Shown piece by piece: positions 18,545 through 52,661 of a stretch of 64,000 nucleotides of DNA. The translations under genes and the position numbers were made by a program. Position 1 is the stretch's first letter. Each line of letters begins with the position of its first letter. The notes beneath the pieces are model-generated. The model made no database searches. It saw only the letters and a list, made by a program, of their open reading frames with translations, and was not told the DNA's origin. Source of the stretch: a virus. The stretch is from positions 1 to 64,000 of the IMG/VR virus record IMGVR_UViG_3300028364_000023, one strand, 5' to 3'.

Positions 18545-19015
18545 TTAAAATGTAGTAAACGCTTGTATCTTAGTAAAACCTTCGTCCAGGGTAGGCTTTT
18601 TCAAGTGTTGAATCATACTTTTCATCACACGGACTGGAATCTCTTTGCCCGGGCGATTTGCCAATCTCTCTGCTAAGATATCAGCCGGTGGTGTCTCAAA
18701 GTATAATGCTGTCTTGTTATATTCTGGTAGCATAGCAAGCTTCTTGGCTCGTGACTTAGCTGTTGTGTTGGTCTGGTCCCAAATAATGTCCAGCCTTTTT
18801 TCTCGAGCTCGACGGACTGCTCGCATCATCAAGCGGTCTGCACGTTTAATGGTTAGGCTAAACACCTCATTATAGGTCTTGCCCATTTTCTTAGCAAACT
18901 TCTCAACATAATAATCGGTTGAGATATGTACAAAGTTATGGTCTTGCGCGTCTACAAAGGTGCTCTTGCCTGAGCCAGGCACTCCGATCAGCATATATAA
19001 GTTTGGCTTTAACAT
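18545..19015 (-). CDS. Polynucleotide kinase domain (T4 Pnk N-terminal type)
   Basis: P-loop kinase that phosphorylates 5'-OH ends of RNA or DNA. GVPGSGKST at residues about 11-19, D in STDYY, then RRAREKR and WDQTN. 156 residues, so only the kinase domain; the 3'-phosphatase domain of T4 Pnk is absent. Probably works with the RNA ligase genes in tRNA repair; the phosphoesterase at 17.5 kb might supply the missing end-healing step (inference). Confidence 0.82.
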   Translation of the reverse strand: MLKPNLYMLIGVPGSGKSTFVDAQDHNFVHISTDYYVEKFAKKMGKTYNEVFSLTIKRADRLMMRAVRRAREKRLDIIWDQTNTTAKSRAKKLAMLPEYNKTALYFETPPADILAERLANRPGKEIPVRVMKSMIQHLKKPTLDEGFTKIQAFTTF

Positions 19016-19025
19016 TTCGTCCTTC

Positions 19026-19460
19026 CTATTTGTGTAGTGGCAGGTTTTCTATCCGCTTTAGATCTTCTTGAATTCCTTCAGAAACAAAACACCAGCCGCA
19101 GGTAGTCTCTCTTGTGACTTGCAGCTCTCCATAGAAGTTTTTCCACGGATACGTTGGGTCTATAGTGCTGCCGGAAACGTTATTATACGTTGCTATGTCA
19201 TTAATCACAGCCAAATCAGCTGACAATACAATGGTCCTTCCAAAGGTACCATCTCCGCACCACTCTTCATAATCTGCTATTGTGTTTTTAAACGCAACAC
19301 TACGGTCACAATCGGCGCCGTCATAATCGACTATGTTTTCTTTAGCCCACTCTATGTGAGCGTTGAACTCTGCCTGACTGTGTGCGGCGGCTGCCATTCC
19401 CTTGCCAGGGTTGCAATCGGGCAAGTCTGAACGCATGATAATGTACAGTGTAGGTTCCAT
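19026..19460 (-). CDS. Peptidyl-tRNA hydrolase 2-like protein
   Basis: 145 residues. LYIIMRSDLPDCNPGKGMAAAAHSQAEF resembles the Pth2 signature in which a lysine-rich KG(K/M) turn is followed by AAQ.SHA. The rest is Trp/Asp-rich and longer than Pth2. A peptidyl-tRNA or related hydrolase is possible. Start at ATG 19460 with AAGGA; a TTG two codons earlier is less likely. Confidence 0.55.
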   Translation of the reverse strand: MEPTLYIIMRSDLPDCNPGKGMAAAAHSQAEFNAHIEWAKENIVDYDGADCDRSVAFKNTIADYEEWCGDGTFGRTIVLSADLAVINDIATYNNVSGSTIDPTYPWKNFYGELQVTRETTCGWCFVSEGIQEDLKRIENLPLHK

Positions 19461-19491
19461 TCTCAATTCCTTTTTCTATTTAATTTAACAT

Positions 19492-19520
19492 ATTATAAAC
19501 GAAAAATGCTCCATTGTCAA
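19492..19520 (-). promoter_or_regulatory. Consensus sigma70 promoter nested in a terminator
   Basis: TTGACA, exactly 17 bp, TATAAT. The -35 lies in the loop and inner arm of the 14-bp terminator hairpin at 19503-19538. Confidence 0.85.
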
Positions 19521-19538
19521 CTAACAATGGAGCATTTT
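19503..19538. terminator. Rho-independent terminator, bidirectional
   Basis: Perfect 14-bp stem (aaaatgctccattg with its complement), 8-base loop, T-run on both strands. Ends transcription coming from the right and from the left. Confidence 0.85.
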
Positions 19539-19608
19539 AGTAATTTAGGCAGGAATAAACAAGTAAGTAATGGATGAAACAAAGTACATTAGCACACTAG
19601 CGCAATGC

Positions 19609-19728
19609 TTAGTTAGCTAAAGCAACATACAACGGACAATCTACAACGAACGACTTTTTCCTAGCAGCAACATACAACGTCATATTAGCTAGGAGCACGT
19701 CATTGGAGTCGGCTGTTGAGGCCTCCAT
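19609..19728 (-). CDS. Possible 39-residue peptide in a gene-poor gap
   Basis: In the 435-base gap between the two neighbouring genes one minus-strand frame reads MEASTADSNDVLLANMTLYV and ends CPLYVALAN. A 13-residue frame just upstream, with AGGGG before its ATG, stops where this one starts. A 14-bp direct repeat (19621-19634, 19666-19679) lies inside it. It may instead be untranslated leader. Confidence 0.3.
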   Translation of the reverse strand: MEASTADSNDVLLANMTLYVAARKKSFVVDCPLYVALAN

Positions 19729-19895
19729 TTAGTTTAGGATCTCTCCTAAAGATCCATTCTCGTCTCTCATTTACCCCTGGGTAGTTTACTTACACATTAC
19801 GCAAGCATAACTACCAAAACTGAAATTGTGCCACCTGCGTTTATCGTGATAATCACTTGCCGGCTATCTAAGTCCGGTGGCCCGACGTCGATTCT

Positions 19896-20468
19896 TTACA
19901 GCAAATCTGCTGCGTGTAATACATCTACTTGTTCTTTCGTTAGCTCAACTTCGTTTTTAATGTTGGCTTCTAGTAGCATATCCTGCAGACGAACCTTTTC
20001 TTTCTTTGCAGTTGACAGTGCATGTTTCATCTGATCCAACGCATCTTTATCAAAGATGTTAGTTGAAATACTGTCGCTTCGGTCATATAGTGAACGACCT
20101 GTGTCTGACGGTTGCTCCTTGAGCTTGCCAACTTTTCCGTTGATAACCTCATTAGCTAGTCTCGGACTAAGTTGTTCAGACATTGCATAAAAATTAATAT
20201 CTTTTTCTGCTCGGGCAACGTCTGCTAAGATCTCGTTTACTCCAGCAGCAACGTTTGCCAGTGCTACACTCTTTCGTAGGAGATATAGCGTGTCTAACAG
20301 TTCCTTGCGCAGGTACTCTTCTCTGATGAATTTTTCGATGGCTGCTTCAATAACCGAGCTCGGATGTTCGAATTCGTTCAGCGCAACTTCTTTCGTAAAC
20401 GCTAGCTTGTTTGCAGCTTCGTTTAACGCTGCTTGCAGTGCGTGTGCTTTTCGTAGTGTAATTTTCAT
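19896..20468 (-). CDS. Unknown helical protein
   Basis: 190 residues, almost entirely helical, alternating charged and leucine/alanine-rich (KITLRKAHALQAALNEAANK at the start). Coiled-coil or bundle fold expected. Single-gene unit from promoter 20516-20544 to the terminator at 19.5 kb. Function unknown. Confidence 0.6.
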   Translation of the reverse strand: MKITLRKAHALQAALNEAANKLAFTKEVALNEFEHPSSVIEAAIEKFIREEYLRKELLDTLYLLRKSVALANVAAGVNEILADVARAEKDINFYAMSEQLSPRLANEVINGKVGKLKEQPSDTGRSLYDRSDSISTNIFDKDALDQMKHALSTAKKEKVRLQDMLLEANIKNEVELTKEQVDVLHAADLL

Positions 20469-20515
20469 ATTAGCCTCTTAGCCTGTTTAATGTGTCTTTT
20501 ATTTAATATACAGCT

Positions 20516-20544
20516 AGTATAGCGCAAACTTTACTAGCTGTCAA
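20516..20544 (-). promoter_or_regulatory. Sigma70-type promoter
   Basis: TTGACA, 17 bp, TATACT on the minus strand, reading into 20468. Confidence 0.85.
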
Positions 20545-20573
20545 CTTCTTTTTAACTTTCTTTTAATTAAGGT

Positions 20574-20843
20574 CTACGTCTGTTGACTGTCTGCTTCATT
20601 GTGCAGACGTTGAGCAACACCCTCTATACAGTCTACTTTGACGAACGTTCGGTTGTGCCACAGCGCAATTTCAGAGGCATCAGTTAACGCTTCGATAGCC
20701 TCGGCCTGCTTTCGCTTTATTTCTGCAACGGCCCCAGCCTTTGCTTGATCCGCTATAGCCTTACCAACTGCATAGAAGCAACTATCATGCCGGGTGTTGT
20801 AATCAGCTCTCCGTAATACGTCTCTATAGAAATTGCTGTTCTT
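20574..20843 (-). pseudogene. Coding-like frame without a start codon
   Basis: A 90-codon frame open from 20843 to a TAG at 20574 looks clearly coding (FYAVGKAIADQAKAG, then a charged helix, then LWHNRTFVKVDCIEGVAQR) but contains no ATG, GTG or TTG. It overlaps the 66-residue gene 20753-20953 in the -1 frame. Either a lost start, a frameshift fusion with that gene, or a sequence error. Confidence 0.5.
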
Positions 20844-20953
20844 TCAACCAGTTCGTTTCCGTTGGGCCCTACTATTTTTACGTAAGACTTGCCGACCACG
20901 TACTTGTACAGGATGCCGTCCACATGCACGTTTCGATACTTGCTTTTGCTCAT
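20753..20953 (-). CDS. Unknown 66-residue protein
   Basis: Starts MSKSKYRNVHVDG; basic N-terminus, beta-rich middle. AGGAATAAAA before the ATG. The C-terminus ends abruptly (MQLVRL) in the overlap with the startless frame, so it may be the N-terminal part of a frameshifted gene. Function unknown. Confidence 0.55.
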   Translation of the reverse strand: MSKSKYRNVHVDGILYKYVVGKSYVKIVGPNGNELVERTAISIETYYGELITTPGMIVASMQLVRL

Positions 20954-20955
20954 TT

Positions 20956-22011
20956 TTATTCCTCTTTCAGCAAAAACCTGTTACTGATGACTTTAAAGCT
21001 CTTGTCGCCGTCCTTTAGGTTCTTGAATACAATGCCTTCTGCAAACTTGTGATTAATGCTGGGCCGTTCTGCCATAGCAAGGAACCAATCAACGTTAACT
21101 TGATCTTCAGTAATCAAAAGACCTTCAATTAGCACAGGTACGTGCTCTACAGTGTTGGTGTAATCTGCGACTAGATCAAGCACTGCTCTACGCTCGCCTG
21201 CGTTTAAGTATCTGTCCTCACTAATATTGTAGACGTCAAACACAAAGAATCTAGGCTTGGTAAACTTCTCTCTGTTGTTCTGAATACCAGGGCCCATGAT
21301 CTCTCCCTGGAGAGCAAAGTCAAACCCGACCTTGTCAGCAACAGCAGGCAATGCCTCACTGTAGTTCATTCCCCGCGCAAACGTTACAAGAGTGTTGCCG
21401 TTATTGGCCTCATTGTCCTTGAGGTGAAGATTGCGACTACATACCCCCGCAGTGCCTTCGCGAGTGAACAGTGTCATGCTGCTACCATCCAACTTCATAG
21501 TAACTTCCCACTCTCCCACAAACCAGTCTGGCATACTGATGAGATTCTGAACACGTTCCTGATCAGTTTTGCTCATAAACGCAGGGAACATGCCGTGTAC
21601 TTCACCTGCTAAACAAGCTGGAATCGGTGGATCGTATTTTACAATGCCCAGGTTCTCGCTTAGATCTAATCCTTCGAAATCTGCGCCGCTGCCGTCAATA
21701 AAGTCACTTACTGGAAGCAACAGTCCTTGACTAACTTGTCCTCGCAATTTTACAGTGCGCAGTCGGTTGCCTACAATACCTTCGTATGTTTTAGCTCCGC
21801 CACCTTTGCTAAGAAACGGTGCCAACTGCTCTGGAATCCAAGAATCTATTGAACAATATACAGCAAGATCACCTAGGTTGTATTTTGCTATTTGATCAAC
21901 TACCCACCATCCGCCGACTCGATAAGCACAGATATTGTCTGCGTTAGGTATACTTTTAATTTCTTCAATTTTAGCTATCCATGCCATTACTCGATTTCGA
22001 TCTATATACAT
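20956..22011 (-). CDS. RNA ligase, Rnl5/DraRnl-like
   Basis: 351 residues. The N-terminal part (KIEEIKSIPNADNICAYRV ... GDLAVYCSIDS) is the OB-type domain of Deinococcus-like RNA ligases, followed by a nucleotidyltransferase core with motif I MKLDGSS, a QGEIMGPG motif, EGIVFKN and FKVISNRF. This class seals 3'-OH/5'-PO4 nicks in RNA when the 3' side is RNA. The ATG at 22011 has a perfect AGGTGA seven bases upstream; Met9 fits family starts less well supported by an RBS. Second RNA ligase in the window. Confidence 0.85.
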   Translation of the reverse strand: MYIDRNRVMAWIAKIEEIKSIPNADNICAYRVGGWWVVDQIAKYNLGDLAVYCSIDSWIPEQLAPFLSKGGGAKTYEGIVGNRLRTVKLRGQVSQGLLLPVSDFIDGSGADFEGLDLSENLGIVKYDPPIPACLAGEVHGMFPAFMSKTDQERVQNLISMPDWFVGEWEVTMKLDGSSMTLFTREGTAGVCSRNLHLKDNEANNGNTLVTFARGMNYSEALPAVADKVGFDFALQGEIMGPGIQNNREKFTKPRFFVFDVYNISEDRYLNAGERRAVLDLVADYTNTVEHVPVLIEGLLITEDQVNVDWFLAMAERPSINHKFAEGIVFKNLKDGDKSFKVISNRFLLKEE

Positions 22012-26024: not shown

Positions 26025-26326
26025 TTTATTACCTTTTGTGTTGAATTAGGAGCAGACGACAGGATTCTAACCTATTCACAAAGATCTATAATCTTTGTTA
26101 AGTCTTATTCCTACGAGCATTTACCGGTATACTCATAGTTTAGACTCAGGACCGCCGTTCGCTCTCCGCCTGCATAATTAGTACCGCCCTAGGTAAAAGC
26201 CTCGAGACAATTACCTAGGACTTCCGGAATTTTTTATAGAGTCCAACTCAGCAGCCATCTTGACCACCACAGGAATCGAACCTGCTTTCCGGCATTTCTT
26301 TCTTTTTTCGTCTCTATTCTAAATTT
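26025..26326 (-). other. Degenerate tRNA-like segments
   Basis: No ORF. About 26050-26130 has a T-arm-like TTAGAAT segment and a 7-bp AAAGA/TCTTT-type hairpin. A 9-bp perfect stem (cctaggtaa) sits at 26188-26219. At 26262-26292 a clear T-arm (AGG TTCGATT CCT) with a following acceptor-like strand lacks the rest of the tRNA. Looks like tRNA genes in decay. Confidence 0.5.
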
Positions 26327-27484: not shown

Positions 27485-27666
27485 TTTACACTGCCGGGGA
27501 TCGAACCCGGATGTTTCAATTACGTTGCGCTGTTATGAAACGGGTAGTTCTCGCCTGACTCAGTTATACAAGTCTTGAGCGCAAAACGGTGTATTATTAA
27601 TATTTCACCGCCTATCCATATTGGCTTATTCCGCACCCCTGTATACCTATTCCAGCACAGTGTAAA
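27485..27666 (-). ncRNA. Oversized tRNA-like RNA, 182 bases
   Basis: The two ends pair over 9 bp (TTTACACTG with CAGTGTAAA), a perfect T-arm (CCGGG TTCGATC CCCGG) abuts the 3' strand, and the 5' side has a Leu-type D-arm-like segment. About 90 extra bases with their own hairpins replace the normal anticodon region. Either a tRNA with an insertion or the 5' domain of a larger RNA. Confidence 0.5.
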
Positions 27667-32351: not shown

Positions 32352-32427
32352 TGGAGCGGATCAGGGGACTTGAACCCCTAACATCTGACTTGGAAGGACA
32401 GTGCTCTACCAATTGAGCTAGATCCGC
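32352..32427 (-). tRNA. tRNA-Gly(UCC)
   Basis: Complete cloverleaf, loop CTTCCAA, U73 and encoded CCA. Its first 10 bases overlap the end of the homing endonuclease upstream, whose stop codon lies inside the tRNA. Confidence 0.93.
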
Positions 32428-33050
32428 AAATTTTTACAGTTATCGAAATGATAACGCTTAAATGCTTGTTCGCCGCCTACTCTTTTACAGTAAGGACATT
32501 GTACTCTGTTCTGTTTCTTGCCTCTCAGACTTTCGGCAATCTTTTTTTTATGTTCTTCGGTTTTTATTCTTCCCGACACTGTCTTAGATATTGCTGCGTT
32601 TCTAGCAGGGTTTTTTGCTCTTATACGATTTGCTTCGGCTCTTTCTTCTCGGCACTCGTCTGTTGGACACCAAGTTCCGTTATCTCTTTTTGTTGCTAGC
32701 ATCTTCTTAATAGACGCTTGCGTATGTTTCCTTCCTTTAAATTTAGCTATACCGCTTTTATTAATGTAGGAAAATCCACCTTTCCCACCAACAATTAAGT
32801 TAAGGCACTGCTTGTCTTTCAAGACCGTTTCATTAACTAGCTCGTTTTCTTTTCTAAACATTTCTTCTTCACTAGTGCAGTCGAACAGAATTTCTTTATA
32901 AAAGCTCTCTTTTCCGTACTTTTTGATAGATTTAGCTAAGCGTGTTCCTGAACCTAAATATGAATCAGTTGGGTTATTAGTAACGTGTGTACCGATGTAA
33001 TATTTTCTGTTAATTATATTTGTTGTCTTGTATACTGTATAATGTTTCAT
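32418..33050 (-). CDS. GIY-YIG homing endonuclease
   Basis: 210 residues from the ATG at 33050. N-terminal GIY-YIG domain (YTVYKTTN ... KYYIGTH, later R and E in SEEEMFRKENELV), then NUMOD-like helices and a terminal zinc finger (CPYCKR...H...C). No Shine-Dalgarno; a CTAAATA box ends five bases before the ATG. It replaces the anticodon region of a tRNA-Gly gene. Confidence 0.85.
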   Translation of the reverse strand: MKHYTVYKTTNIINRKYYIGTHVTNNPTDSYLGSGTRLAKSIKKYGKESFYKEILFDCTSEEEMFRKENELVNETVLKDKQCLNLIVGGKGGFSYINKSGIAKFKGRKHTQASIKKMLATKRDNGTWCPTDECREERAEANRIRAKNPARNAAISKTVSGRIKTEEHKKKIAESLRGKKQNRVQCPYCKRVGGEQAFKRYHFDNCKNLRI

Positions 33051-33055
33051 ACAAT

Positions 33056-33063
33056 TATTTAGC
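33056..33063 (-). promoter_or_regulatory. Late-promoter-like GCTAAATA box
   Basis: Five bases before the GIY-YIG ATG; same layout as other homing genes. Confidence 0.35.
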
Positions 33064-33066
33064 AAT

Positions 33067-33101
33067 GAAGACACTCGTGTTACCCTTCACACCATGTCCG
33101 C
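33067..33101 (-). pseudogene. tRNA 5' half, Gly(UCC)-like, broken at anticodon
   Basis: GCGGACA, TG, D-arm GTG...CAC, anticodon stem AGTGT and loop start CTTC, then cut. Partner acceptor strand is at 32041-32065. Confidence 0.65.
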
Positions 33102-33369: not shown

Positions 33370-34020
33370 CTAAAACTTTATTTTTCTACCTTCTAACCAT
33401 CCTTCAGGTAGAGGTTCTTCTTTATTAACTTTTTTAGATTTCTTTAATTCTAAATTATGAATCCATCTTGTACCAAACTGAGAATTACCTTTACCAGTTT
33501 GGTGAATACTATTTGCTTTACCTATTTTCTTTTTTGATTCTTCATTATGGAATTTCCCTTTCCATACTCCTTCTGGGTATAATAGCTTATGAGCTTCCAC
33601 TCCAAGTCTACTGAACTCCTTCATACGTGACAGTTGCGCTGCGCGGAAGACAGGATCATTTTTCCATTTATCAACAAAAACTTTTGAACCAATATGCGGT
33701 TTATAGTCTACAAGACTACGATCAACATTTTCGTTAATCCAATCAAACCCACCTTGACCACCTTCTTTCAAATTATAGTTATCTTTATCTTTAATAAATT
33801 CTTCGTTAACTATCTTTGCTTCAGCAGAGAACATATCTTCTGGGTTGTCGTAAACTTCTAATATTTCTTTAGTGAAGTTTTCAATTCCATTTTTCTTTAT
33901 TGATAGCTTTAGGATCTTACCTGATCCCATATAGTCATCATTGATATCGTGAGTCTTATGGACTCCTACGTATATCTTATTGTTAATAATATTCGTTATC
34001 TTGTATAGTGTGTATAGCAT
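33370..34020 (-). CDS. GIY-YIG homing endonuclease
   Basis: 216 residues. YTLYKITN ... KIYVGVH at the N-terminus and a catalytic E in SAEAKIVNEEF; C-terminal basic NUMOD-type helices and the end RWIHNLELKKSKKV typical of phage SegA-like proteins. No zinc finger at the end. Preceded seven bases upstream by TATAAATA, no Shine-Dalgarno. Confidence 0.85.
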   Translation of the reverse strand: MLYTLYKITNIINNKIYVGVHKTHDINDDYMGSGKILKLSIKKNGIENFTKEILEVYDNPEDMFSAEAKIVNEEFIKDKDNYNLKEGGQGGFDWINENVDRSLVDYKPHIGSKVFVDKWKNDPVFRAAQLSRMKEFSRLGVEAHKLLYPEGVWKGKFHNEESKKKIGKANSIHQTGKGNSQFGTRWIHNLELKKSKKVNKEEPLPEGWLEGRKIKF

Positions 34021-34783: not shown

Positions 34784-34859
34784 TGGTAGTACCACCTGGT
34801 GTCGATCCAGGACCTCTCGGTTATCAGCCGAGTGTACAGAGCCGCTATACTATGGTACT
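34784..34859 (-). tRNA. tRNA-Ile(GAU)
   Basis: Full cloverleaf; acceptor AGTACCA/TGGTACT, loop CTGATAA, A73, CCA. Confidence 0.9.
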
Positions 34860-34865
34860 ATAAAA

Positions 34866-34903
34866 TGGTCTCCTAGAGGGGTATCGATCCCCTTGCTCTT
34901 GGG
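34866..34903 (-). pseudogene. tRNA-Ile(UAU) 3' half
   Basis: Anticodon 3' stem CCAAG, T-arm AGGGG-ATCGATA-CCCCT, acceptor CTAGGAG, A73, CCA. Pairs with the 5' half at 35915-35950. Confidence 0.75.
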
Positions 34904-34911
34904 TGACTTTA

Positions 34912-34919
34912 CATAAATA
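34912..34919 (+). promoter_or_regulatory. Late-promoter-like CATAAATA box
   Basis: 46 bases before the plus-strand homing gene. Confidence 0.45.
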
Positions 34920-34964
34920 CATTGTGAATTAACCGCACTATTAGATAAAAACGGAGTTACTAAC

Positions 34965-35822
34965 TTGCATATTTATAAATCACCTATATGTTCTTGTATC
35001 ATATGCGGCAAACAGTTATCCGCCAAAGGCATAGCTGGACATCATCGACTTTCTCATGATGCTGCTCAAAGAGTTGCACATCAGCAGCGAATGAAATTTG
35101 TGGCTCCACAAATTTCAAGTAAACTAAAACAAAACACAATTAATCAGTTTAAGGAAACAGCTGATAAGTTTTGTAAGTCGTGCACCCTAGCTCTTCCATT
35201 TGAAAAACGGCACAGCACTTTTTGTTCAAAATCTTGTTCAACGACATTTACAAATACTAAACGGAAAGTAAAGGAGAGCACCAAGAAGAAACTTTCGTTG
35301 TATGCTAAAAATAATCCTTCCGGATTTGTTACTAATAGGCCGACTTTTCAACGTAAAGGAACGTATAAAACTTGCTCTTCTGAAACTTGCCAAAATAAAT
35401 TTTATGCCTATCCTTGTGAAGAAAGTAAAAAATACTGTTCATTTAGCTGCTTTATACCGTATTCTGGTGGCGAACGTAAAGGATCCGGAAATAGTAAAGG
35501 TGGATATTATAAAGGTTTTTATTTAGCATCTACATACGAACTGTGTTACTATATTTTTTGTGTTGATCACCAAATCTGCATTGAACGTAATAAAGAATCT
35601 TGGAAATATTATTACAACGGTAAGCACAGAAAGTATTATCCAGATTTTCGTGTCAACGGGCGTCTTGTTGAGATCAAAGGTTATTACACCCATGTTGTTG
35701 ACTTAAAATTACAGTCAGTGTCGGAACCTATTGATATACTGTATAAAAAGGATCTAAAATTTGTATTTGATTATGTTACTGATTTCTATTTTGTTACCGA
35801 CTATAAAGTTCTATACGATTAA
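34965..35822 (+). CDS. Homing endonuclease, PD-(D/E)xK-like with zinc fingers
   Basis: 285 residues, TTG start with ACGGAG eight bases upstream. N-terminal CIICG...H...H finger, then CKSC/CSKSC and a later CSS/CSFSC finger, then a nuclease-like end: FYLASTYELCYY (E), YYPDF (PD) and VEIKG (ExK), the order of a PD-(D/E)xK core. AT-rich. It sits, with tRNA-Glu, inside a split tRNA-Ile. No GIY-YIG or HNH motif. Confidence 0.72.
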   Translation: MHIYKSPICSCIICGKQLSAKGIAGHHRLSHDAAQRVAHQQRMKFVAPQISSKLKQNTINQFKETADKFCKSCTLALPFEKRHSTFCSKSCSTTFTNTKRKVKESTKKKLSLYAKNNPSGFVTNRPTFQRKGTYKTCSSETCQNKFYAYPCEESKKYCSFSCFIPYSGGERKGSGNSKGGYYKGFYLASTYELCYYIFCVDHQICIERNKESWKYYYNGKHRKYYPDFRVNGRLVEIKGYYTHVVDLKLQSVSEPIDILYKKDLKFVFDYVTDFYFVTDYKVLYD

Positions 35823-35824
35823 GT

Positions 35825-35900
35825 TGGTGCTCTTAGTGGGACTCGAACCCAACATTACTGGAGTGAAAGTCCAGTGTCCTAACCTTTAGACGATAAGAGC
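35825..35900 (-). tRNA. tRNA-Glu(UUC)
   Basis: Full cloverleaf; loop CTTTCAC, acceptor GCTCTTA/TAAGAGC, A73, CCA. Confidence 0.92.
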
Positions 35901-35914
35901 GTATAGTTTTAAAA

Positions 35915-35950
35915 ATAAGCCAAGTGATTTAGCCACTAATCGACTAGGAG
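35915..35950 (-). pseudogene. tRNA-Ile(UAU) 5' half
   Basis: CTCCTAG, TC, D-arm GATT/AATC, anticodon stem CTTGG and loop CTTAT, cut after position 36. Its acceptor strand holds the stop codon of the gene at 35944. Confidence 0.75.
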
Positions 35951-36749: not shown

Positions 36750-37388
36750 TTACTGTAACGTCTTGTTTACTACTCGGCCTCTTCTGTACCCTTCTGGTAT
36801 AAGTTCAGTCTTCTTAATCTTCTTTGATTCTACTTCGTTTGTAATCCACATCGTACCAAACTGCGAATTTCGTTTTCCTTTACTATGAATTTTAGCCTTT
36901 TCACTAATTAGTTGTTTAGTTGCGTCAGTATGTTTTTTTCCTAAAAAAGTTCTAAGGGCCAATGCTGCTAAGGAAGTGCTAATGCGTTTGTTGGTCTCTT
37001 CTGTATGACTTCTGCCGTAAAAAGTACCGTTTGGATACTTTGATATTCTAGCTTTACACATTTTATTCATATGTTCTTTTGAATGCGAAGAATTGTTTTT
37101 GTTAACATAGTCCCATCCACCAAATCCACCTACTTTTAAATTATAAGTGTTAGCTTCTGTCAAAAATTCTTCATTTACTAATTCTGCTTCTTTTGCGTAC
37201 ATTAGCTCAGGAGTATCAAAAATAAACAATATTTCTTTCACAAAATTATCAATTCCGTGTTTTTCTAATGCTCGCTTCAAATACTTACCTGAGCCCATAT
37301 AGCCGTCATTAAGATTAGGGGTCTTATGAGATCCGATATAGATCTTGCCGTTCATCTTATTTGTAACTTTGTATATAGTATAGTTCAT
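36750..37388 (-). CDS. GIY-YIG homing endonuclease
   Basis: 212 residues from the ATG at 37388. YTIYKVTN ... KIYIGSH, catalytic E in AKEAELVNEEF, NUMOD helices and an MWITNEVESKKIKK end much like the gene at 33370. TATAAATA ends four bases before the ATG; no Shine-Dalgarno. A 10-bp hairpin (GAGTCTTAAC) lies just upstream. Confidence 0.85.
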   Translation of the reverse strand: MNYTIYKVTNKMNGKIYIGSHKTPNLNDGYMGSGKYLKRALEKHGIDNFVKEILFIFDTPELMYAKEAELVNEEFLTEANTYNLKVGGFGGWDYVNKNNSSHSKEHMNKMCKARISKYPNGTFYGRSHTEETNKRISTSLAALALRTFLGKKHTDATKQLISEKAKIHSKGKRNSQFGTMWITNEVESKKIKKTELIPEGYRRGRVVNKTLQ

Positions 37389-37392
37389 ACTG

Positions 37393-37400
37393 TATTTATA
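37393..37400 (-). promoter_or_regulatory. Late-promoter-like TATAAATA box
   Basis: Four bases before the GIY-YIG start at 37388. Confidence 0.5.
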
Positions 37401-37438
37401 CAAAGTTCGAGTCTTAACACTAAGTTAAGACTCAAATG

Positions 37439-38466: not shown

Positions 38467-38537
38467 TGGCGCGTCGACGAGGTTACGATCCTCACAAGAT
38501 CGGTTTTGGAGACCAATCAGTACCCAGTACCCGACGC
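38467..38537 (-). tRNA. tRNA-Trp(CCA), short D-arm
   Basis: Acceptor GCGTCGG/TCGACGC, stem TTGGT/ACCGA with loop CTCCAAA, T-arm GAGG-ATCGTAA-CCTC, G73 and CCA. D-arm only GTAC-TGG-GTAC. Its first 21 bases overlap the 3' end of the HNH gene. Confidence 0.82.
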
Positions 38538-39212
38538 ATATAAAACTTCTTTAGCCCACTTGCCTACCCCGGACTTTAACGAATATGAATTGCCATATCC
38601 CATTTTGTCGAGTGCTGTCGAGAAGGCATAACCTTCTTCTATTAGGCTAATAAACTTGTCTTTTCTTTTCAAAAATTCTAATTCGTTTTTTGTTACACGA
38701 CTTAGCTGTAATTTAGTAAGGCATCCTTGACAATATTTTGCATGCTGTGAAGTAATTTTAACCAGACAACCAGTACAATGCTTCTGTGTTGATTTTCTCC
38801 CTTTAATCCAGCCTATTGGAACATTTTCTTTAAGAAACTTCCCGTTTTCTAAAGTCTCAGGATTATAATACCAGGGCTTCCCGTACGACGAGTTTTCACT
38901 TCCTTTTCGTTTTCTACACTCGCTAATGTAACGTTTCTTTATCCATCCGTACTGTTTATTACTACGCAAATTCTTTCTACTACTAACAGTCATCATATTA
39001 GCAGCGTATACCAACTTATGTTCCTTTGGGTGCATCTTAACTAGTAACTGATGTGCTACATAGTGCTCTTCAGGAGTTAATGCTACTATATTCTCTCTGT
39101 CATCTGTGCCGCCTAAGCATCTAGGAACAATATGATGTTTCTCAGTGTAACCGTCAAATACTCGTGTTTTTGCTCGTTCAATCAATGTCGCATAATGTTT
39201 GTTATAGTTCAT
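38517..39212 (-). CDS. HNH homing endonuclease
   Basis: 231 residues from the ATG at 39212. HNH core EKHHIVPRCLGGTDDRENIV ... HYVAHQLLVKMHP near residues 20-55, then a CTGC...CQGC zinc ribbon and a helical C-terminus. GATAAATA lies five bases before the ATG. The frame ends inside tRNA-Trp, and the upstream flank (39229-39282) is a truncated second tRNA-Trp copy. Confidence 0.87.
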   Translation of the reverse strand: MNYNKHYATLIERAKTRVFDGYTEKHHIVPRCLGGTDDRENIVALTPEEHYVAHQLLVKMHPKEHKLVYAANMMTVSSRKNLRSNKQYGWIKKRYISECRKRKGSENSSYGKPWYYNPETLENGKFLKENVPIGWIKGRKSTQKHCTGCLVKITSQHAKYCQGCLTKLQLSRVTKNELEFLKRKDKFISLIEEGYAFSTALDKMGYGNSYSLKSGVGKWAKEVLYASGTGY

Positions 39213-39217
39213 ACGAC

Positions 39218-39225
39218 TATTTATC
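39218..39225 (-). promoter_or_regulatory. Late-promoter-like GATAAATA box
   Basis: Five bases before the HNH gene start. Confidence 0.4.
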
Positions 39226-39228
39226 ATT

Positions 39229-39282
39229 TTGCGAACCCCGCTTACTGGTTTTGGAGACCAATCCGTACCCTGTACCTGAGGC
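39229..39282 (-). pseudogene. tRNA-Trp fragment, cut in the T-loop
   Basis: Same D-arm and anticodon arm as the intact tRNA-Trp (a shared run through CTCCAAAACC), then GGGG-TTCG and a break into the HNH promoter region. Confidence 0.7.
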
Positions 39283-39290
39283 ATAAACTT

Positions 39291-39679: not shown

Positions 39680-39799
39680 ACTTTAAAGTAAAACACACTA
39701 CCTGGTTTCGAAACCAGGATTTACCATTACAGGTCTCGAACCTGTCTTCCCCACGTCTGGAGTGACATCCACGTCTTAGTGTGTTTTACTTTAAAGTTT
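39678..39799 (-). ncRNA. tRNA-like element with 23-bp terminal stem
   Basis: Perfect 23-bp pairing (39678-39700 with 39777-39799), a T-arm-like CCTGG-TTTCGAA-ACCAGG next to the stem, a class-II-like hairpin ACAGGT/ACCTGT. Anticodon arm not clear. Confidence 0.5.
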
Positions 39800-39982: not shown

Positions 39983-40690
39983 CTACTTTTTAAAATTAAT
40001 TAAACTATCTGCAAAGCGGTGATTGGTGTCTCGATGACCCACTTCGTCCATTCTGACCACTATAATGACATCGCGCAAAGTCGCATCGACGGGCAATTTC
40101 CAATAGTCAATTGCAATCTGCGGCGCGGCCACGTTTTCCAAACGGCCGCTGTCCACCTCAGCCAGGTATTCGCTATAGCTGTAAACCGCCTCTTCTTCAA
40201 AATAACCCACTAGCCGATGTGCGGTGCGGCCCGAAACAACATAGAGAAACAGAAAGCTGGTGAAGAAAATTCCCTGCGCCAACAAAATCAACACCCGTTC
40301 CAGAAAGCTGGGCTGAGCAATTTGCACAAACGTCATCAGGTGCATGCGCTCGTTTTCAGCCTCTTCCAGCAGCGTGTGAATCCATTCCCGATTGTCCTCC
40401 ATCCGACGGAGGGAGCGCATGTGCCCCAGCATTCCTCCGACCATTCCCGGTACTGCGGCTACGGTTTCCAATACTACCGCACGATGGCCATAGCGTTTGG
40501 CAAAAAATAGGTCTGCAAAAAACCGCAACAGCCTGGTTAAGCGAAAGGCCACGCGGTCAGAAAACCCCGACGGAGTATGATGCTTGCTCAGCGGATCACT
40601 ATGTTTGTCCAAGTTCATTTTACATAGTCTAGCATGAGCAGACTCTTTGCTATCATCTTTAAATTTCTTTCCACAGTGTACACATTTCAT
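39983..40690 (-). CDS. aox: Alternative oxidase (AOX) with N-terminal zinc finger
   Basis: Membrane-bound di-iron quinol oxidase that passes electrons from ubiquinol to oxygen without pumping protons. 235 residues. Di-iron ligands are all visible: LETVAAVPG (Glu75), NERMH (Glu114, His117), YFEEEA (Glu165-167) and DEVGHRD (Glu216, His219), with RYGHRAVVLET before. Residues 1-24 are foreign to AOX: MKCVHCGKKF...H..LC is a zinc finger in AT-rich phage-like DNA, while from Met25 (40618) the gene is distinctly GC-richer. It could also start at Met25. Probably a recent bacterial acquisition; cyanophages carry the related PTOX. Confidence 0.92.
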   Translation of the reverse strand: MKCVHCGKKFKDDSKESAHARLCKMNLDKHSDPLSKHHTPSGFSDRVAFRLTRLLRFFADLFFAKRYGHRAVVLETVAAVPGMVGGMLGHMRSLRRMEDNREWIHTLLEEAENERMHLMTFVQIAQPSFLERVLILLAQGIFFTSFLFLYVVSGRTAHRLVGYFEEEAVYSYSEYLAEVDSGRLENVAAPQIAIDYWKLPVDATLRDVIIVVRMDEVGHRDTNHRFADSLINFKK

Positions 40691-40753
40691 ATTTATCAGC
40701 TCAGAATTGATAGTTGTTATTTTCAATACTAGTAATGCTACAAATTTCTTACA

Positions 40754-40786
40754 CAAAAAAAGCCCAGTGCGTGTGCAGTGGGCTTG
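40754..40786 (-). terminator. Rho-independent terminator
   Basis: AGCCCA stem with TGGGCT, one mismatch, CACACG loop, seven T on the minus strand. Ends leftward transcripts before the AOX gene. Confidence 0.82.
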
Positions 40787-40811
40787 TAAAGTGTCGAACT
40801 GTTCTTTCGCT

Positions 40812-40892
40812 CTACACCAAACCCACCATAACACTATTACTCGAATTATTCCAAGTAGTTGTTAGTGATGACAGCAGTGTAGTAAGTTTCAT
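40812..40892 (-). CDS. Possible 26-residue peptide
   Basis: MKLTTLLSSLTTTWNN... between the WYL_2-like gene and the terminator; AAAGGAA 13 bases upstream and a GATAAATA box at 40922-40929. Weak support. Confidence 0.3.
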   Translation of the reverse strand: MKLTTLLSSLTTTWNNSSNSVMVGLV

Positions 40893-50317: not shown

Positions 50318-51127
50318 TTAACCCTGTATACGCTGCCTGATCTCACCCAAGCTGGTTTGGTTGTAGAGCTTGCTGTCCTTAAACACAGTCTTTAGCTCAC
50401 CGCCTGCTTCTTCAGCCCACGTTACTTGGTCTTGCATTACGTATTCTCCGTCTACTAGATCAACACGTAACAAACCTTTAGCACTCTTCTTTGTGCCGCT
50501 GTCTGTTGCTGGGTCTTTAAAGATTTCACGTCCTACTCCGTTGACCTCACCATAGGTTGCCTTCATTGCAAACCCCATGCTGTCGCGTGTGTTGTACTGG
50601 TAAGTGTATGACCCCACTCCAAGAACAACGTTGCTGCTAGCAAAGCCTTTGTCTGCCAGTCTGCGTAGAATTGCGTGTGCGCGTTCTAGCGTAATGCTAT
50701 CGCCATAGATTAAGCCAATATGCTCGTCTAATTCTCTATAACCACAGTCGGTTAGCGTACCACCAAAAGTGTCCCACAGGCATTCGATAGCGCCTTTGAC
50801 TTCTGCAGGAGACAGTGTGATACCGTCCTTGTAGCTAATGAGCTCACCGTCTTCTTCGATGTAATATTCGTCTTCAGTGTAGCCTGTGATGATCTTTACA
50901 GGGTCTCCGCTGTCTGGACGCAACACTACCTTGTTAAGGCCAATGGCGTTTGGTTGGCGAGCCATAATAACGTCTTTGAGCGCAGGAATATACTCAGTAA
51001 CCACAGTCCAAAAGTCCCACGTGTCACTAACAATAGATACAAGCCCTGTTGGATACAGGTCTTCGACCAAGTGCCGAAACAGTTCCTGCTCGCAGTAGTT
51101 CATGATTTCTTTTTCGGTATACGACAT
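50318..51127 (-). CDS. nadV: Nicotinamide phosphoribosyltransferase, C-terminal half
   Basis: 269 residues from the ATG at 51127, which has AAAGGAA upstream. It carries the C-terminal NAMPT motifs: PTGLVSIVSDTWDFW, VVLRPDSGDP (catalytic Asp), LIYGDSIT, NVVLGVGSY, KATYGEVNG and GREIFKDP. Fused in thought to the N-terminal half at 51810, the total is about 517 residues, right for phage NadV. A longer frame to 51259 exists but lies outside the homologous part. The product makes NMN from nicotinamide and PRPP, or the equivalent ADP-ribosyl product if this is the Namat type. Confidence 0.9.
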   Translation of the reverse strand: MSYTEKEIMNYCEQELFRHLVEDLYPTGLVSIVSDTWDFWTVVTEYIPALKDVIMARQPNAIGLNKVVLRPDSGDPVKIITGYTEDEYYIEEDGELISYKDGITLSPAEVKGAIECLWDTFGGTLTDCGYRELDEHIGLIYGDSITLERAHAILRRLADKGFASSNVVLGVGSYTYQYNTRDSMGFAMKATYGEVNGVGREIFKDPATDSGTKKSAKGLLRVDLVDGEYVMQDQVTWAEEAGGELKTVFKDSKLYNQTSLGEIRQRIQG

Positions 51128-51143
51128 AAAATTTCCTTTTTTG

Positions 51144-51151
51144 TATAAATA
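51144..51151 (+). promoter_or_regulatory. Late-promoter-like TATAAATA box
   Basis: Exact box 21 bases before the HNH gene, with ACGGAG between. Confidence 0.5.
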
Positions 51152-51172
51152 CACATAACGGAGTGTAAAATA

Positions 51173-51898
51173 ATGAATTACATAAAAACTTATAACGCTA
51201 TAATAGCACAGTTTGGGCAACGTGTCAAGCCAAAAGACGTTTATTCTGAAAGGCACCATATTGTTCCTAAGTCGATCGGCGGAACCAACTGTTCTACTAA
51301 TTTAGTATACTTGTCTGCTCGTGTACATTTTATATGTCACAGGATGCTTTGTAAGATATATCCAGAATCTGATAAACTAAAATTTGCTTTCTGGGCAATG
51401 AACAATCAACTTAACGGTGATGTTCAACGATACTACAAAATTACTTCTCGAACATTTCAGACTGCTAAAGAGCAATTTGCTATTGCTAATTCTAACTTAC
51501 ATTCTGGAAAAACACTATCGCCTGAGCACATTAATATTATTAGACAACTTATTAAAACTAACAACCCTCATAAAGGTGGTAAAGAATCTCACTTATATAA
51601 CATACCAAGAACACCTGACGTTGTCGACAAGATAAGAAATACAAAACTTGCGCATCCTGAAAGGAATGCTAACTTTAAGGGGCACTATGTAACCCCTAAA
51701 GGAACTTTCGGGTCTGCTCCGCAAGCAGCCCGAAGCACTCCTTATACCGCCGGAACAGTGCGCAACTTTTGCTCAAATCCTGACAGGATTGTTACTAAGC
51801 AAATGTTAACTAACCCTTGGCTATCTGAAGAACACGTCGGTGCGCGTCTTCGAGACTTAGGTTGGGATTTTCTTCCAGCTGCTCGCCGATTAACTTAG
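51173..51898 (+). CDS. HNH homing endonuclease inserted in nadV
   Basis: 241 residues on the plus strand. HNH core ERHHIVPKSIGGTNCSTNLV ... HFICHRML near residues 26-60, NUMOD-like middle and basic C-terminal helix. Own late-type promoter and Shine-Dalgarno. It lies antisense between the two halves of nadV and its end overlaps the N-terminal half by 89 bases. Confidence 0.88.
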   Translation: MNYIKTYNAIIAQFGQRVKPKDVYSERHHIVPKSIGGTNCSTNLVYLSARVHFICHRMLCKIYPESDKLKFAFWAMNNQLNGDVQRYYKITSRTFQTAKEQFAIANSNLHSGKTLSPEHINIIRQLIKTNNPHKGGKESHLYNIPRTPDVVDKIRNTKLAHPERNANFKGHYVTPKGTFGSAPQAARSTPYTAGTVRNFCSNPDRIVTKQMLTNPWLSEEHVGARLRDLGWDFLPAARRLT

Positions 51899-52661
51899 AT
51901 AAGTTTCCTACGTTACAGCTCATGACCGAATGTTCGGTTGCAGGAATGCTACACCCAATCATTTCTTTAGCTGGATCTGCGTTGTAGTACTCTTCTAAAT
52001 AGTCAATTGATGGAACACCGTCTGTGCCCACAAAGGACAGCAAGTGCCCGGCCCCTGAGCTTGCGGAATCGTGTAGTCCACTCATTCCCCGGAAGCTAAA
52101 GTCGTGACACTGAATAGGAACGCCATCGAGTGATGCGCCAGTTAGATTAGCATACTTTGTAAGTATTTCGCGATACTCTTTTGCGAGCGTAGCAACTACG
52201 CTTGGCTTCCACAGCTCTGAGCTCATCACGCTTTCAATGTAGTTAACCAGCCAGTAAAACTCTGGTACTGTATTCTTGACTGTAAGAACAGCTACTTTTT
52301 CCGGCACACTTACGCCTTCTGGCAGACCTTTAATCTCTAAAGGCAAATAGCCCAAGTCGTGTAATGCTTCGACGTGATCCATTGGCACAGCGCCGTCACC
52401 TAAGCTAGAGTCAAGTCTTCTTTGATACTTGGCTACAACTTCTGCCTTTGGCTTGTTGAAGAAAGTTTCGTTCCACATATCAATGAGGAACCATTTGCAG
52501 AATCCCTGTAGTCCGAACACTACAGTCTCAGTAGCGTTGCCTTTGTACAGGCGCATACTGCGTGGTGTAAAGTTGCTGTAGACTAGCTCAGTACCTTCTG
52601 GGTACTGGCGTCTGTGATCTGCTTTGTAAAAGTCGATTGCTGAAAGGGCGTCTAATCTCAT
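51810..52661 (-). CDS. nadV: Nicotinamide phosphoribosyltransferase, N-terminal half
   Basis: 283 residues, of which 1-248 match NAMPT: YKADHRRQYP, YSNFTPRS, HDFSFRGMSG, and SIPATEHSVM with the phosphorylated catalytic His244. The last 35 residues are not NAMPT and are read antisense through the HNH gene tail. The split lies right after the catalytic His motif. The halves could reassemble as two subunits. Confidence 0.9.
   Translation of the reverse strand: MRLDALSAIDFYKADHRRQYPEGTELVYSNFTPRSMRLYKGNATETVVFGLQGFCKWFLIDMWNETFFNKPKAEVVAKYQRRLDSSLGDGAVPMDHVEALHDLGYLPLEIKGLPEGVSVPEKVAVLTVKNTVPEFYWLVNYIESVMSSELWKPSVVATLAKEYREILTKYANLTGASLDGVPIQCHDFSFRGMSGLHDSASSGAGHLLSFVGTDGVPSIDYLEEYYNADPAKEMIGCSIPATEHSVMSCNVGNLSKLIGEQLEENPNLSLEDAHRRVLQIAKG

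What the first reader, a model, noticed from the sequence alone, without database searches (positions are those of the whole stretch)
34866..35950. tRNA-Ile(UAU) split at the anticodon loop by a homing gene plus tRNA-Glu
The 5' half (35915-35950) ends after base 36 and the 3' half (34866-34903) starts at the anticodon 3' stem. Joined, they give CTTGG/CCAAG and CTCCTAG/CTAGGAG pairings and a normal length with about two loop bases missing. The 1-kb insert holds a plus-strand homing endonuclease and tRNA-Glu. Trans-splicing of the halves is conceivable but unproven.
Basis: partly seen in the sequence, partly recalled or inferred. Interest (0 to 1): 0.82.

Follow-up and report, generated by a model that had tools for sequence, protein, structure and literature searches.

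The report
Homing gene replaces tRNA-Glu it splits

Summary
The two halves are real and belong together: minus strand 35950-35917 and 34906-34866. No other 5' half in the 101-kb record pairs with the 3' half, and shuffled sequence gives none. The identity given is wrong. Cut after base 34 and resumed at base 35, the halves make a complete 75-nt tRNA-Glu(UUC) with loop CTTTCAC and no missing bases. With the loop masked, its 8 nearest phage tRNAs are all Glu; none of 439 non-Glu tRNAs shows that. The 1010-bp insert holds a plus-strand homing-endonuclease-like ORF and an intact, clearly different tRNA-Glu(UUC), the only intact tRNA-Glu in the record. There is no room for an intron core, no intron family matches, and the flanks do not pair. 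Best explanation: an intron-less homing endonuclease gene entered the tRNA-Glu anticodon together with a same-isotype replacement, so the broken gene need not be expressed. A homologue in Lak-B megaphages sits beside a tRNA-Glu at the very place where nuclease-free Lak-A/C phages have a different tRNA-Glu. Trans-splicing cannot be excluded but is not needed. Cleavage of tRNA-Glu, resistance of the carried copy and an empty site in a close relative are not shown.

The parts
35917..35950 (-). 5' half of broken tRNA-Glu(UUC), bases 1-34 (CTCCTAG TC GATT AGTGGCTA AATC A CTTGG CTT)
34866..34906 (-). 3' half of broken tRNA-Glu(UUC), bases 35 to CCA (TCAC CCAAG AGCA AGGGG ATCGATA CCCCT CTAGGAG A CCA)
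   Evidence: joined with the 5' half ARAGORN calls tRNA-Glu(ttc), 75 nt
34907..35916 (.). 1010-bp insert: 58 bp leader, nuclease ORF, 2 bp, intact tRNA-Glu, 16 bp
   Evidence: no Rfam intron
34965..35822 (+). Homing-endonuclease-like ORF, 285 aa (TTG start after GGAG), Cys-rich N-terminal part and PDF...EIKG motif
   Evidence: no Pfam, PHROG or NCBIfam hit at E 0.001; homologues beside tRNA genes in four other phage lineages
35825..35900 (-). Intact insert-borne tRNA-Glu(UUC), the only intact tRNA-Glu in the record
   Evidence: 82-87% identical to Pseudomonas phage tRNA-Glu; 50/78 columns identical to the broken copy
34784..34859 (-). tRNA-Ile(GAT), 6 bp after the broken 3' half; its T-loop begins with A like that of the broken tRNA-Glu
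20956..22011 (-). Rnl5-type (NgrRnl/DraRnl-like) RNA ligase; relevant only to the trans-ligation rival
18545..19015 (-). P-loop kinase, polynucleotide-kinase-like; relevant only to the trans-ligation rival

Best explanation
An intron-less homing endonuclease gene entered the anticodon loop of the phage's resident tRNA-Glu(UUC) gene, between bases 34 and 35, together with an intact but clearly different tRNA-Glu(UUC) gene that takes over the function of the broken one. Inferred cycle: in mixed infection the enzyme cuts tRNA-Glu genes of phages lacking the element; repair copies the whole 1-kb insert; the carried tRNA-Glu, whose anticodon stem differs, is not cut and keeps GAA decoding going, so the insertion costs little and the broken gene remains as debris. 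Shown here: the broken gene and its isotype, the exact junctions, the intact same-isotype tRNA in the insert, and a homologue of the nuclease beside a tRNA-Glu in Lak-B phages at the place where nuclease-free relatives have a different tRNA-Glu. Inferred: nuclease activity and target, cleavage resistance of the carried copy, and joint arrival of nuclease and tRNA.
For: Joined halves = tRNA-Glu(ttc), 75 nt, loop CTTTCAC identical to that of the insert-borne tRNA-Glu. Body classification: 8/8 nearest neighbours Glu; 0/439 non-Glu tRNAs do this; base 9 and variable-loop length fit Glu. In the T-arm loci with the searched tRNAs removed, each half alone has Glu as top hits and top mean. The insert holds the only intact tRNA-Glu and GAA is used at about 49 per 1000 codons. 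Broken and carried copies are of different kinds: 50/78 identical, A versus T at the start of the T-loop. Lak-B: homologous nuclease plus tRNA-Glu (L086 2446-3543) replaces L179 1695-1771, where Lak-C has only its tRNA-Glu; flanks 85-87% identical, tRNA-Glu 61% against 68-83% for tRNAs in matching positions. All five family loci lie next to tRNA genes. A second gene of this phage, NAMPT, is split by an HNH homing ORF although contiguous in 47 of 49 relatives.
Against: No close relative with an empty, intact tRNA-Glu site was found; two viral scans for the intact anticodon arm were designed on the Ile reading and would miss CTTTCAC. Nuclease and carried tRNA could have arrived separately. In Lak-B the nuclease lies beside, not inside, the tRNA-Glu, and a diverged orthologue is possible (a tRNA-Met pair there is only 68% identical). 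Three other family members lie next to tRNA-Ser or tRNA-Asn, so tRNA-Glu is not the only partner. The nuclease assignment rests on weak profile hits in relatives and a motif; the structure model was unusable.
Confidence: 0.6

Rival explanations
1. Plain disruption: a homing gene broke a tRNA gene, and a separately acquired tRNA-Glu happens to lie beside it. The halves are debris and the same isotype is chance or later compensation.
For: Homing genes crowd this tRNA array; family members elsewhere sit next to Ser or Asn tRNAs; no empty site.
Against: The same isotype in both broken and carried gene, and tRNA-Glu again with a Lak-B homologue at a tRNA-Glu site, is more than expected by chance from about 20 isotypes.
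Confidence: 0.28
2. Gene in pieces: both halves are transcribed, pair through 12 stem base pairs, are trimmed and ligated by the phage RNA ligase and kinase to give a working tRNA-Glu.
For: All stems intact and CCA kept; the phage encodes an Rnl5-type RNA ligase and a P-loop kinase; RNase P at the carried tRNA-Glu would free the 5' half. Split protein genes of T4-type phages can keep function (PMC2988022).
Against: No helper pairing between the flanks (energy at the shuffled mean); no known enzyme to trim the inner ends; an intact tRNA-Glu is already present; intact stems also fit a recent insertion.
Confidence: 0.06
3. Intron: the insert is a self-splicing intron with an antisense homing gene and a nested tRNA.
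For: Clean interruption in the anticodon loop, a favoured intron site.
Against: Only 58, 2 and 16 bp are outside the ORF and the tRNA; no group I or II match even at permissive thresholds.
Confidence: 0.02
4. The broken gene is a tRNA-Ile(UAU), as first read.
For: The 5' half read on to AT and the 3' half from AC also gives a 75-nt tRNA with a 7-nt loop, which ARAGORN calls Ile(tat); ATA is a common codon here.
Against: The tRNA body is Glu by nearest neighbours and by base 9; other joins of the same flanks give Asp or Val anticodons, so a plausible anticodon alone proves little.
Confidence: 0.04

Closest known systems
SegB of phage T4/T6 (free-standing GIY-YIG homing endonuclease of the tRNA region)
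   Same: Free-standing homing gene inside a phage tRNA array that cuts tRNA genes and drives inheritance or copy number of the linked tRNAs (PMC13096335; Brok-Volchanskaya 2008, cited there).
   Different: GIY-YIG and placed between tRNA genes; here a PDxxK-type nuclease inside a tRNA gene, with an intact tRNA of the same isotype.
MobE in nrdA of Aeromonas phage Aeh1, MobA in T4 topoisomerase ('genes in pieces')
   Same: An intron-less homing gene splits a gene of a T4-type phage (PMC2988022).
   Different: Those are proteins whose pieces assemble; here it is a tRNA, with a whole substitute gene in the insert.
Marker exclusion / intron-less homing by SegF and SegG
   Same: A homing gene linked to a version of its target that escapes cleavage (own knowledge; topic of PMC2988022).
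   Different: There the resistant target lies beside the homing gene; here nuclease and substitute lie inside the broken target.
Engineered home-and-rescue gene drives
   Same: Nuclease inserted in its target gene together with a recoded, cleavage-resistant copy (own knowledge).
   Different: Engineered in animals; here natural, in a phage, tRNA target, activity untested.
Archaeal split tRNAs (Nanoarchaeum type)
   Same: tRNA halves encoded apart, broken at the anticodon loop (own knowledge).
   Different: No complementary leader and tail, no splicing endonuclease seen, halves in cis order around a homing gene.

Membership tests
Free-standing phage homing endonuclease | Nuclease ORF outside any intron or intein, inserted at a cleavable site | tested here: met
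   ORF 34965-35822 interrupts a tRNA gene; no intron family. Cleavage itself not testable.
Free-standing phage homing endonuclease | Relatives with and without the element at the same locus | tested here: inconclusive
   Seen for the Lak homologue; not for this locus.
PD-(D/E)XK homing endonuclease | PD...(D/E)XK catalytic motif | tested here: inconclusive
   PDF-x7-EIKG conserved in three homologues; weak T7 endonuclease I profile hits in relatives, 1.2e-4 and 0.011, below cut-off; model pLDDT 34.
Split (trans-spliced) tRNA | Complementary flanks or introns that bring the halves together | tested here: not met
   Duplex energy equals the shuffled mean.
Split (trans-spliced) tRNA | Mature joined tRNA in cells | not testable with these tools
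   Needs RNA sequencing.
Group I or II intron in tRNA | Catalytic core in the insert | tested here: not met
   No match; 76 bp outside ORF and tRNA.
tRNA-Ile(UAU) | Ile-like tRNA body | tested here: not met
   8/8 nearest neighbours Glu; C9 in 0/19 Ile.
Home-and-rescue element | Nuclease inserted in its target plus a functional same-gene copy | tested here: inconclusive
   Intact tRNA-Glu(UUC) in the insert within a broken tRNA-Glu(UUC); that tRNA-Glu is the nuclease's target is inferred, not tested.
Home-and-rescue element | Carried copy resists cleavage | not testable with these tools
   Anticodon stems differ (CTTGG/CCAAG versus CTGGA/TCCAG) but no enzyme test.

The most novel reading that the evidence does not exclude
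The broken tRNA-Glu is itself still used: its halves, freed by RNase P processing of the nested tRNA-Glu, assemble and are sealed by the phage RNA ligase and kinase, giving a viral trans-ligated tRNA.
Probability: 0.06. Interest if true: 0.85.

Novelty: new variant of a known kind. Interest (0 to 1): 0.52.

Why it matters
If right, this is a natural counterpart of engineered home-and-rescue drives: a selfish nuclease that breaks a translation gene and supplies its own substitute. It would give one route by which phage tRNA arrays gain foreign tRNA genes, and link homing endonucleases to tRNA turnover, a topic made timely by SegB-driven tRNA amplification against tRNA-cutting defences (PMC13096335). 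It also warns that an anticodon read across a breakpoint can mis-name a tRNA.

Tried and rejected
Archaeal-type trans-splicing (flank pairing at chance). Intron. Intact tRNA-Ile(UAU) in other phages as an empty site: pattern hits were non-tRNA DNA or unrelated Ile tRNAs. Alexandravirus matches beside an RNA 2'-phosphotransferase gene: chance matches in coding DNA, E 0.6-7. Relatives through RNA ligase, alternative oxidase and NAMPT: none reaches the locus with synteny. Nuclease relatives in bacterial genomes: none confirmed. AlphaFold2 of the nuclease: unusable, pLDDT 34, so no fold search was made. T4-like late promoter before the nuclease ORF: motif not enriched. Nuclease-free relatives of LR745208 and LR756500: none held.

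Full report
Observation. On the minus strand, 35950-35917 is a tRNA 5' half and 34906-34866 a 3' half ending in CCA. Acceptor (7 bp), D (4), anticodon (5) and T (5) stems are all perfect. In the whole 101,423-bp record this is the only 5' half with a D-arm that pairs with both the acceptor and the anticodon strand of the 3' half; shuffled sequence gave 0.0 per replicate. A viral scan for the same T-arm plus CCA gave 37 loci: in 36 an ARAGORN-called intact tRNA covers the match, and the exception is this same locus in a second record, identical over 14,809 bp.

Identity. The same flanks also allow CTT + TCAC (UUC, Glu), CT + GTCAC (Asp) and CTTA + CAC (Val), so the body must decide. Against 482 phage tRNAs with the anticodon loop masked, the 8 nearest are all Glu; this happens for 5 of 43 Glu tRNAs and 0 of 439 others. 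Leave-one-out 5-neighbour voting finds Glu in 41 of 43 cases. Base 9 is C, as in 34/43 phage Glu and 0/19 Ile; the 4-nt variable loop is usual for Glu (32/43) but also occurs in Ile. The reference set is enriched for loci with this T-arm; when the searched tRNAs are dropped, both halves separately still rank Glu first, and in the small set from other loci Glu has the best mean for the 5' half and the second best for the 3' half, by small margins. Joined between bases 34 and 35 the gene is 75 nt, loop CTTTCAC, called tRNA-Glu(ttc). No base is missing.

The insert. 34907-35916 (1010 bp) = 58 bp, a plus-strand 285-aa ORF, 2 bp, an intact tRNA-Glu(UUC) on the minus strand, 16 bp. There is no space for an intron core and no Rfam intron. 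The insert-borne tRNA-Glu is the only intact tRNA-Glu in the record. It resembles Pseudomonas phage tRNA-Glu (82-87%) and is only 50/78 identical to the broken gene, which shares its A-starting T-loop with the neighbouring tRNA-Ile(GAT). So the broken gene looks resident and the intact one looks foreign; this is inference.

The nuclease. No family hit at 0.001. tblastn finds relatives only in huge phages: Lak-B, LR745208, LR756508 and LR756500. The alignment keeps PDF...EIKG, and relatives hit the T7 endonuclease I profile weakly, consistent with a PD-(D/E)XK nuclease. All five lie next to tRNA genes: Glu here (2 bp), Glu in Lak-B (11 bp), Ser in LR745208 and LR756508, Asn in LR756500.

The Lak comparison. 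Lak-A and Lak-C lack the nuclease at the locus. Flanks match at 85-87%, but Lak-C 1695-1771 (locus L179), which is its tRNA-Glu(UUC), is replaced in Lak-B (L086) by 1,098 bp holding a different tRNA-Glu(UUC) and the nuclease. The two Lak tRNA-Glu are 61% identical, against 68-83% for tRNAs in matching positions. So twice, in unrelated phages, this nuclease family comes with a divergent tRNA-Glu at a tRNA-Glu locus. The Lak case is weaker because strong divergence of an orthologue is possible.

Mechanism. Most likely a free-standing homing gene that targets tRNA-Glu and brings its own substitute. GAA is used at about 49 per 1000 codons, so loss of a phage tRNA-Glu might matter. Steps shown: insertion site, isotype of both genes, their difference, the Lak parallel. 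Steps inferred: cleavage, resistance of the carried copy, joint transfer. The phage has another gene broken in a similar way: NAMPT is divided by an antisense HNH homing ORF but contiguous in 47 of 49 relatives.

Trans-ligation. The phage has an Rnl5-type RNA ligase (NgrRnl, E 5e-65) and a P-loop kinase, so repair chemistry is present, but the flanks do not pair beyond chance and no trimming enzyme is known. With an intact tRNA-Glu in place there is no need for it. I give it about 6%.

Known context. SegB cuts tRNA genes and amplifies tRNA-Tyr (PMC13096335); MobE, MobA and others split genes in T4-type phages (PMC2988022). Full-text searches for split tRNA with homing endonuclease in phages gave no precedent in the held open-access library; most subscription papers are not covered, so absence there is not proof of novelty.

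Noticed in passing
50318-52661: NAMPT is split into N- and C-terminal ORFs by a plus-strand HNH homing ORF (51173-51898); contiguous in 47 of 49 relatives. In L102 the two parts lie 991 bp apart inside one 895-aa ORF that looks like an intein insertion near the same place.
   Followed up: partly
27487-27664 (minus): tRNA-like element of about 178 nt: acceptor TACACTG/CAGTGTA, D-arm-like and T-arm, with about 100 extra nt where the anticodon arm should be; no Rfam match.
   Followed up: partly
39694-39783 (minus): 90-nt element closed by CACACTA/TAGTGTG that holds two T-arm-like hairpins; possible degenerate tRNA or decoy.
   Followed up: no
26258-26285 (minus): Orphan T-arm with acceptor strand GGTGGTC and no CCA; no matching 5' half was found with the strict search.
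   Followed up: partly
L086:1239-1456 (Lak-B3): tRNA-Tyr(GTA) interrupted in its anticodon loop by about 140 nt that contain a second T-arm-like hairpin, followed directly by an HNH ORF.
   Followed up: no
39983-40834 (minus): Alternative oxidase gene (PF01786, E 1e-82) next to the tRNA array; relatives in 24 viral contigs.
   Followed up: partly
32418-33074, 33370-34020, 36750-37403, 38517-39284 (minus): Four further homing ORFs (GIY-YIG and HNH), each beside or overlapping a tRNA gene in the same array.
   Followed up: no
18545-22011 (minus): P-loop kinase, and an Rnl5-type RNA ligase closest to the Naegleria enzyme among solved structures.
   Followed up: partly
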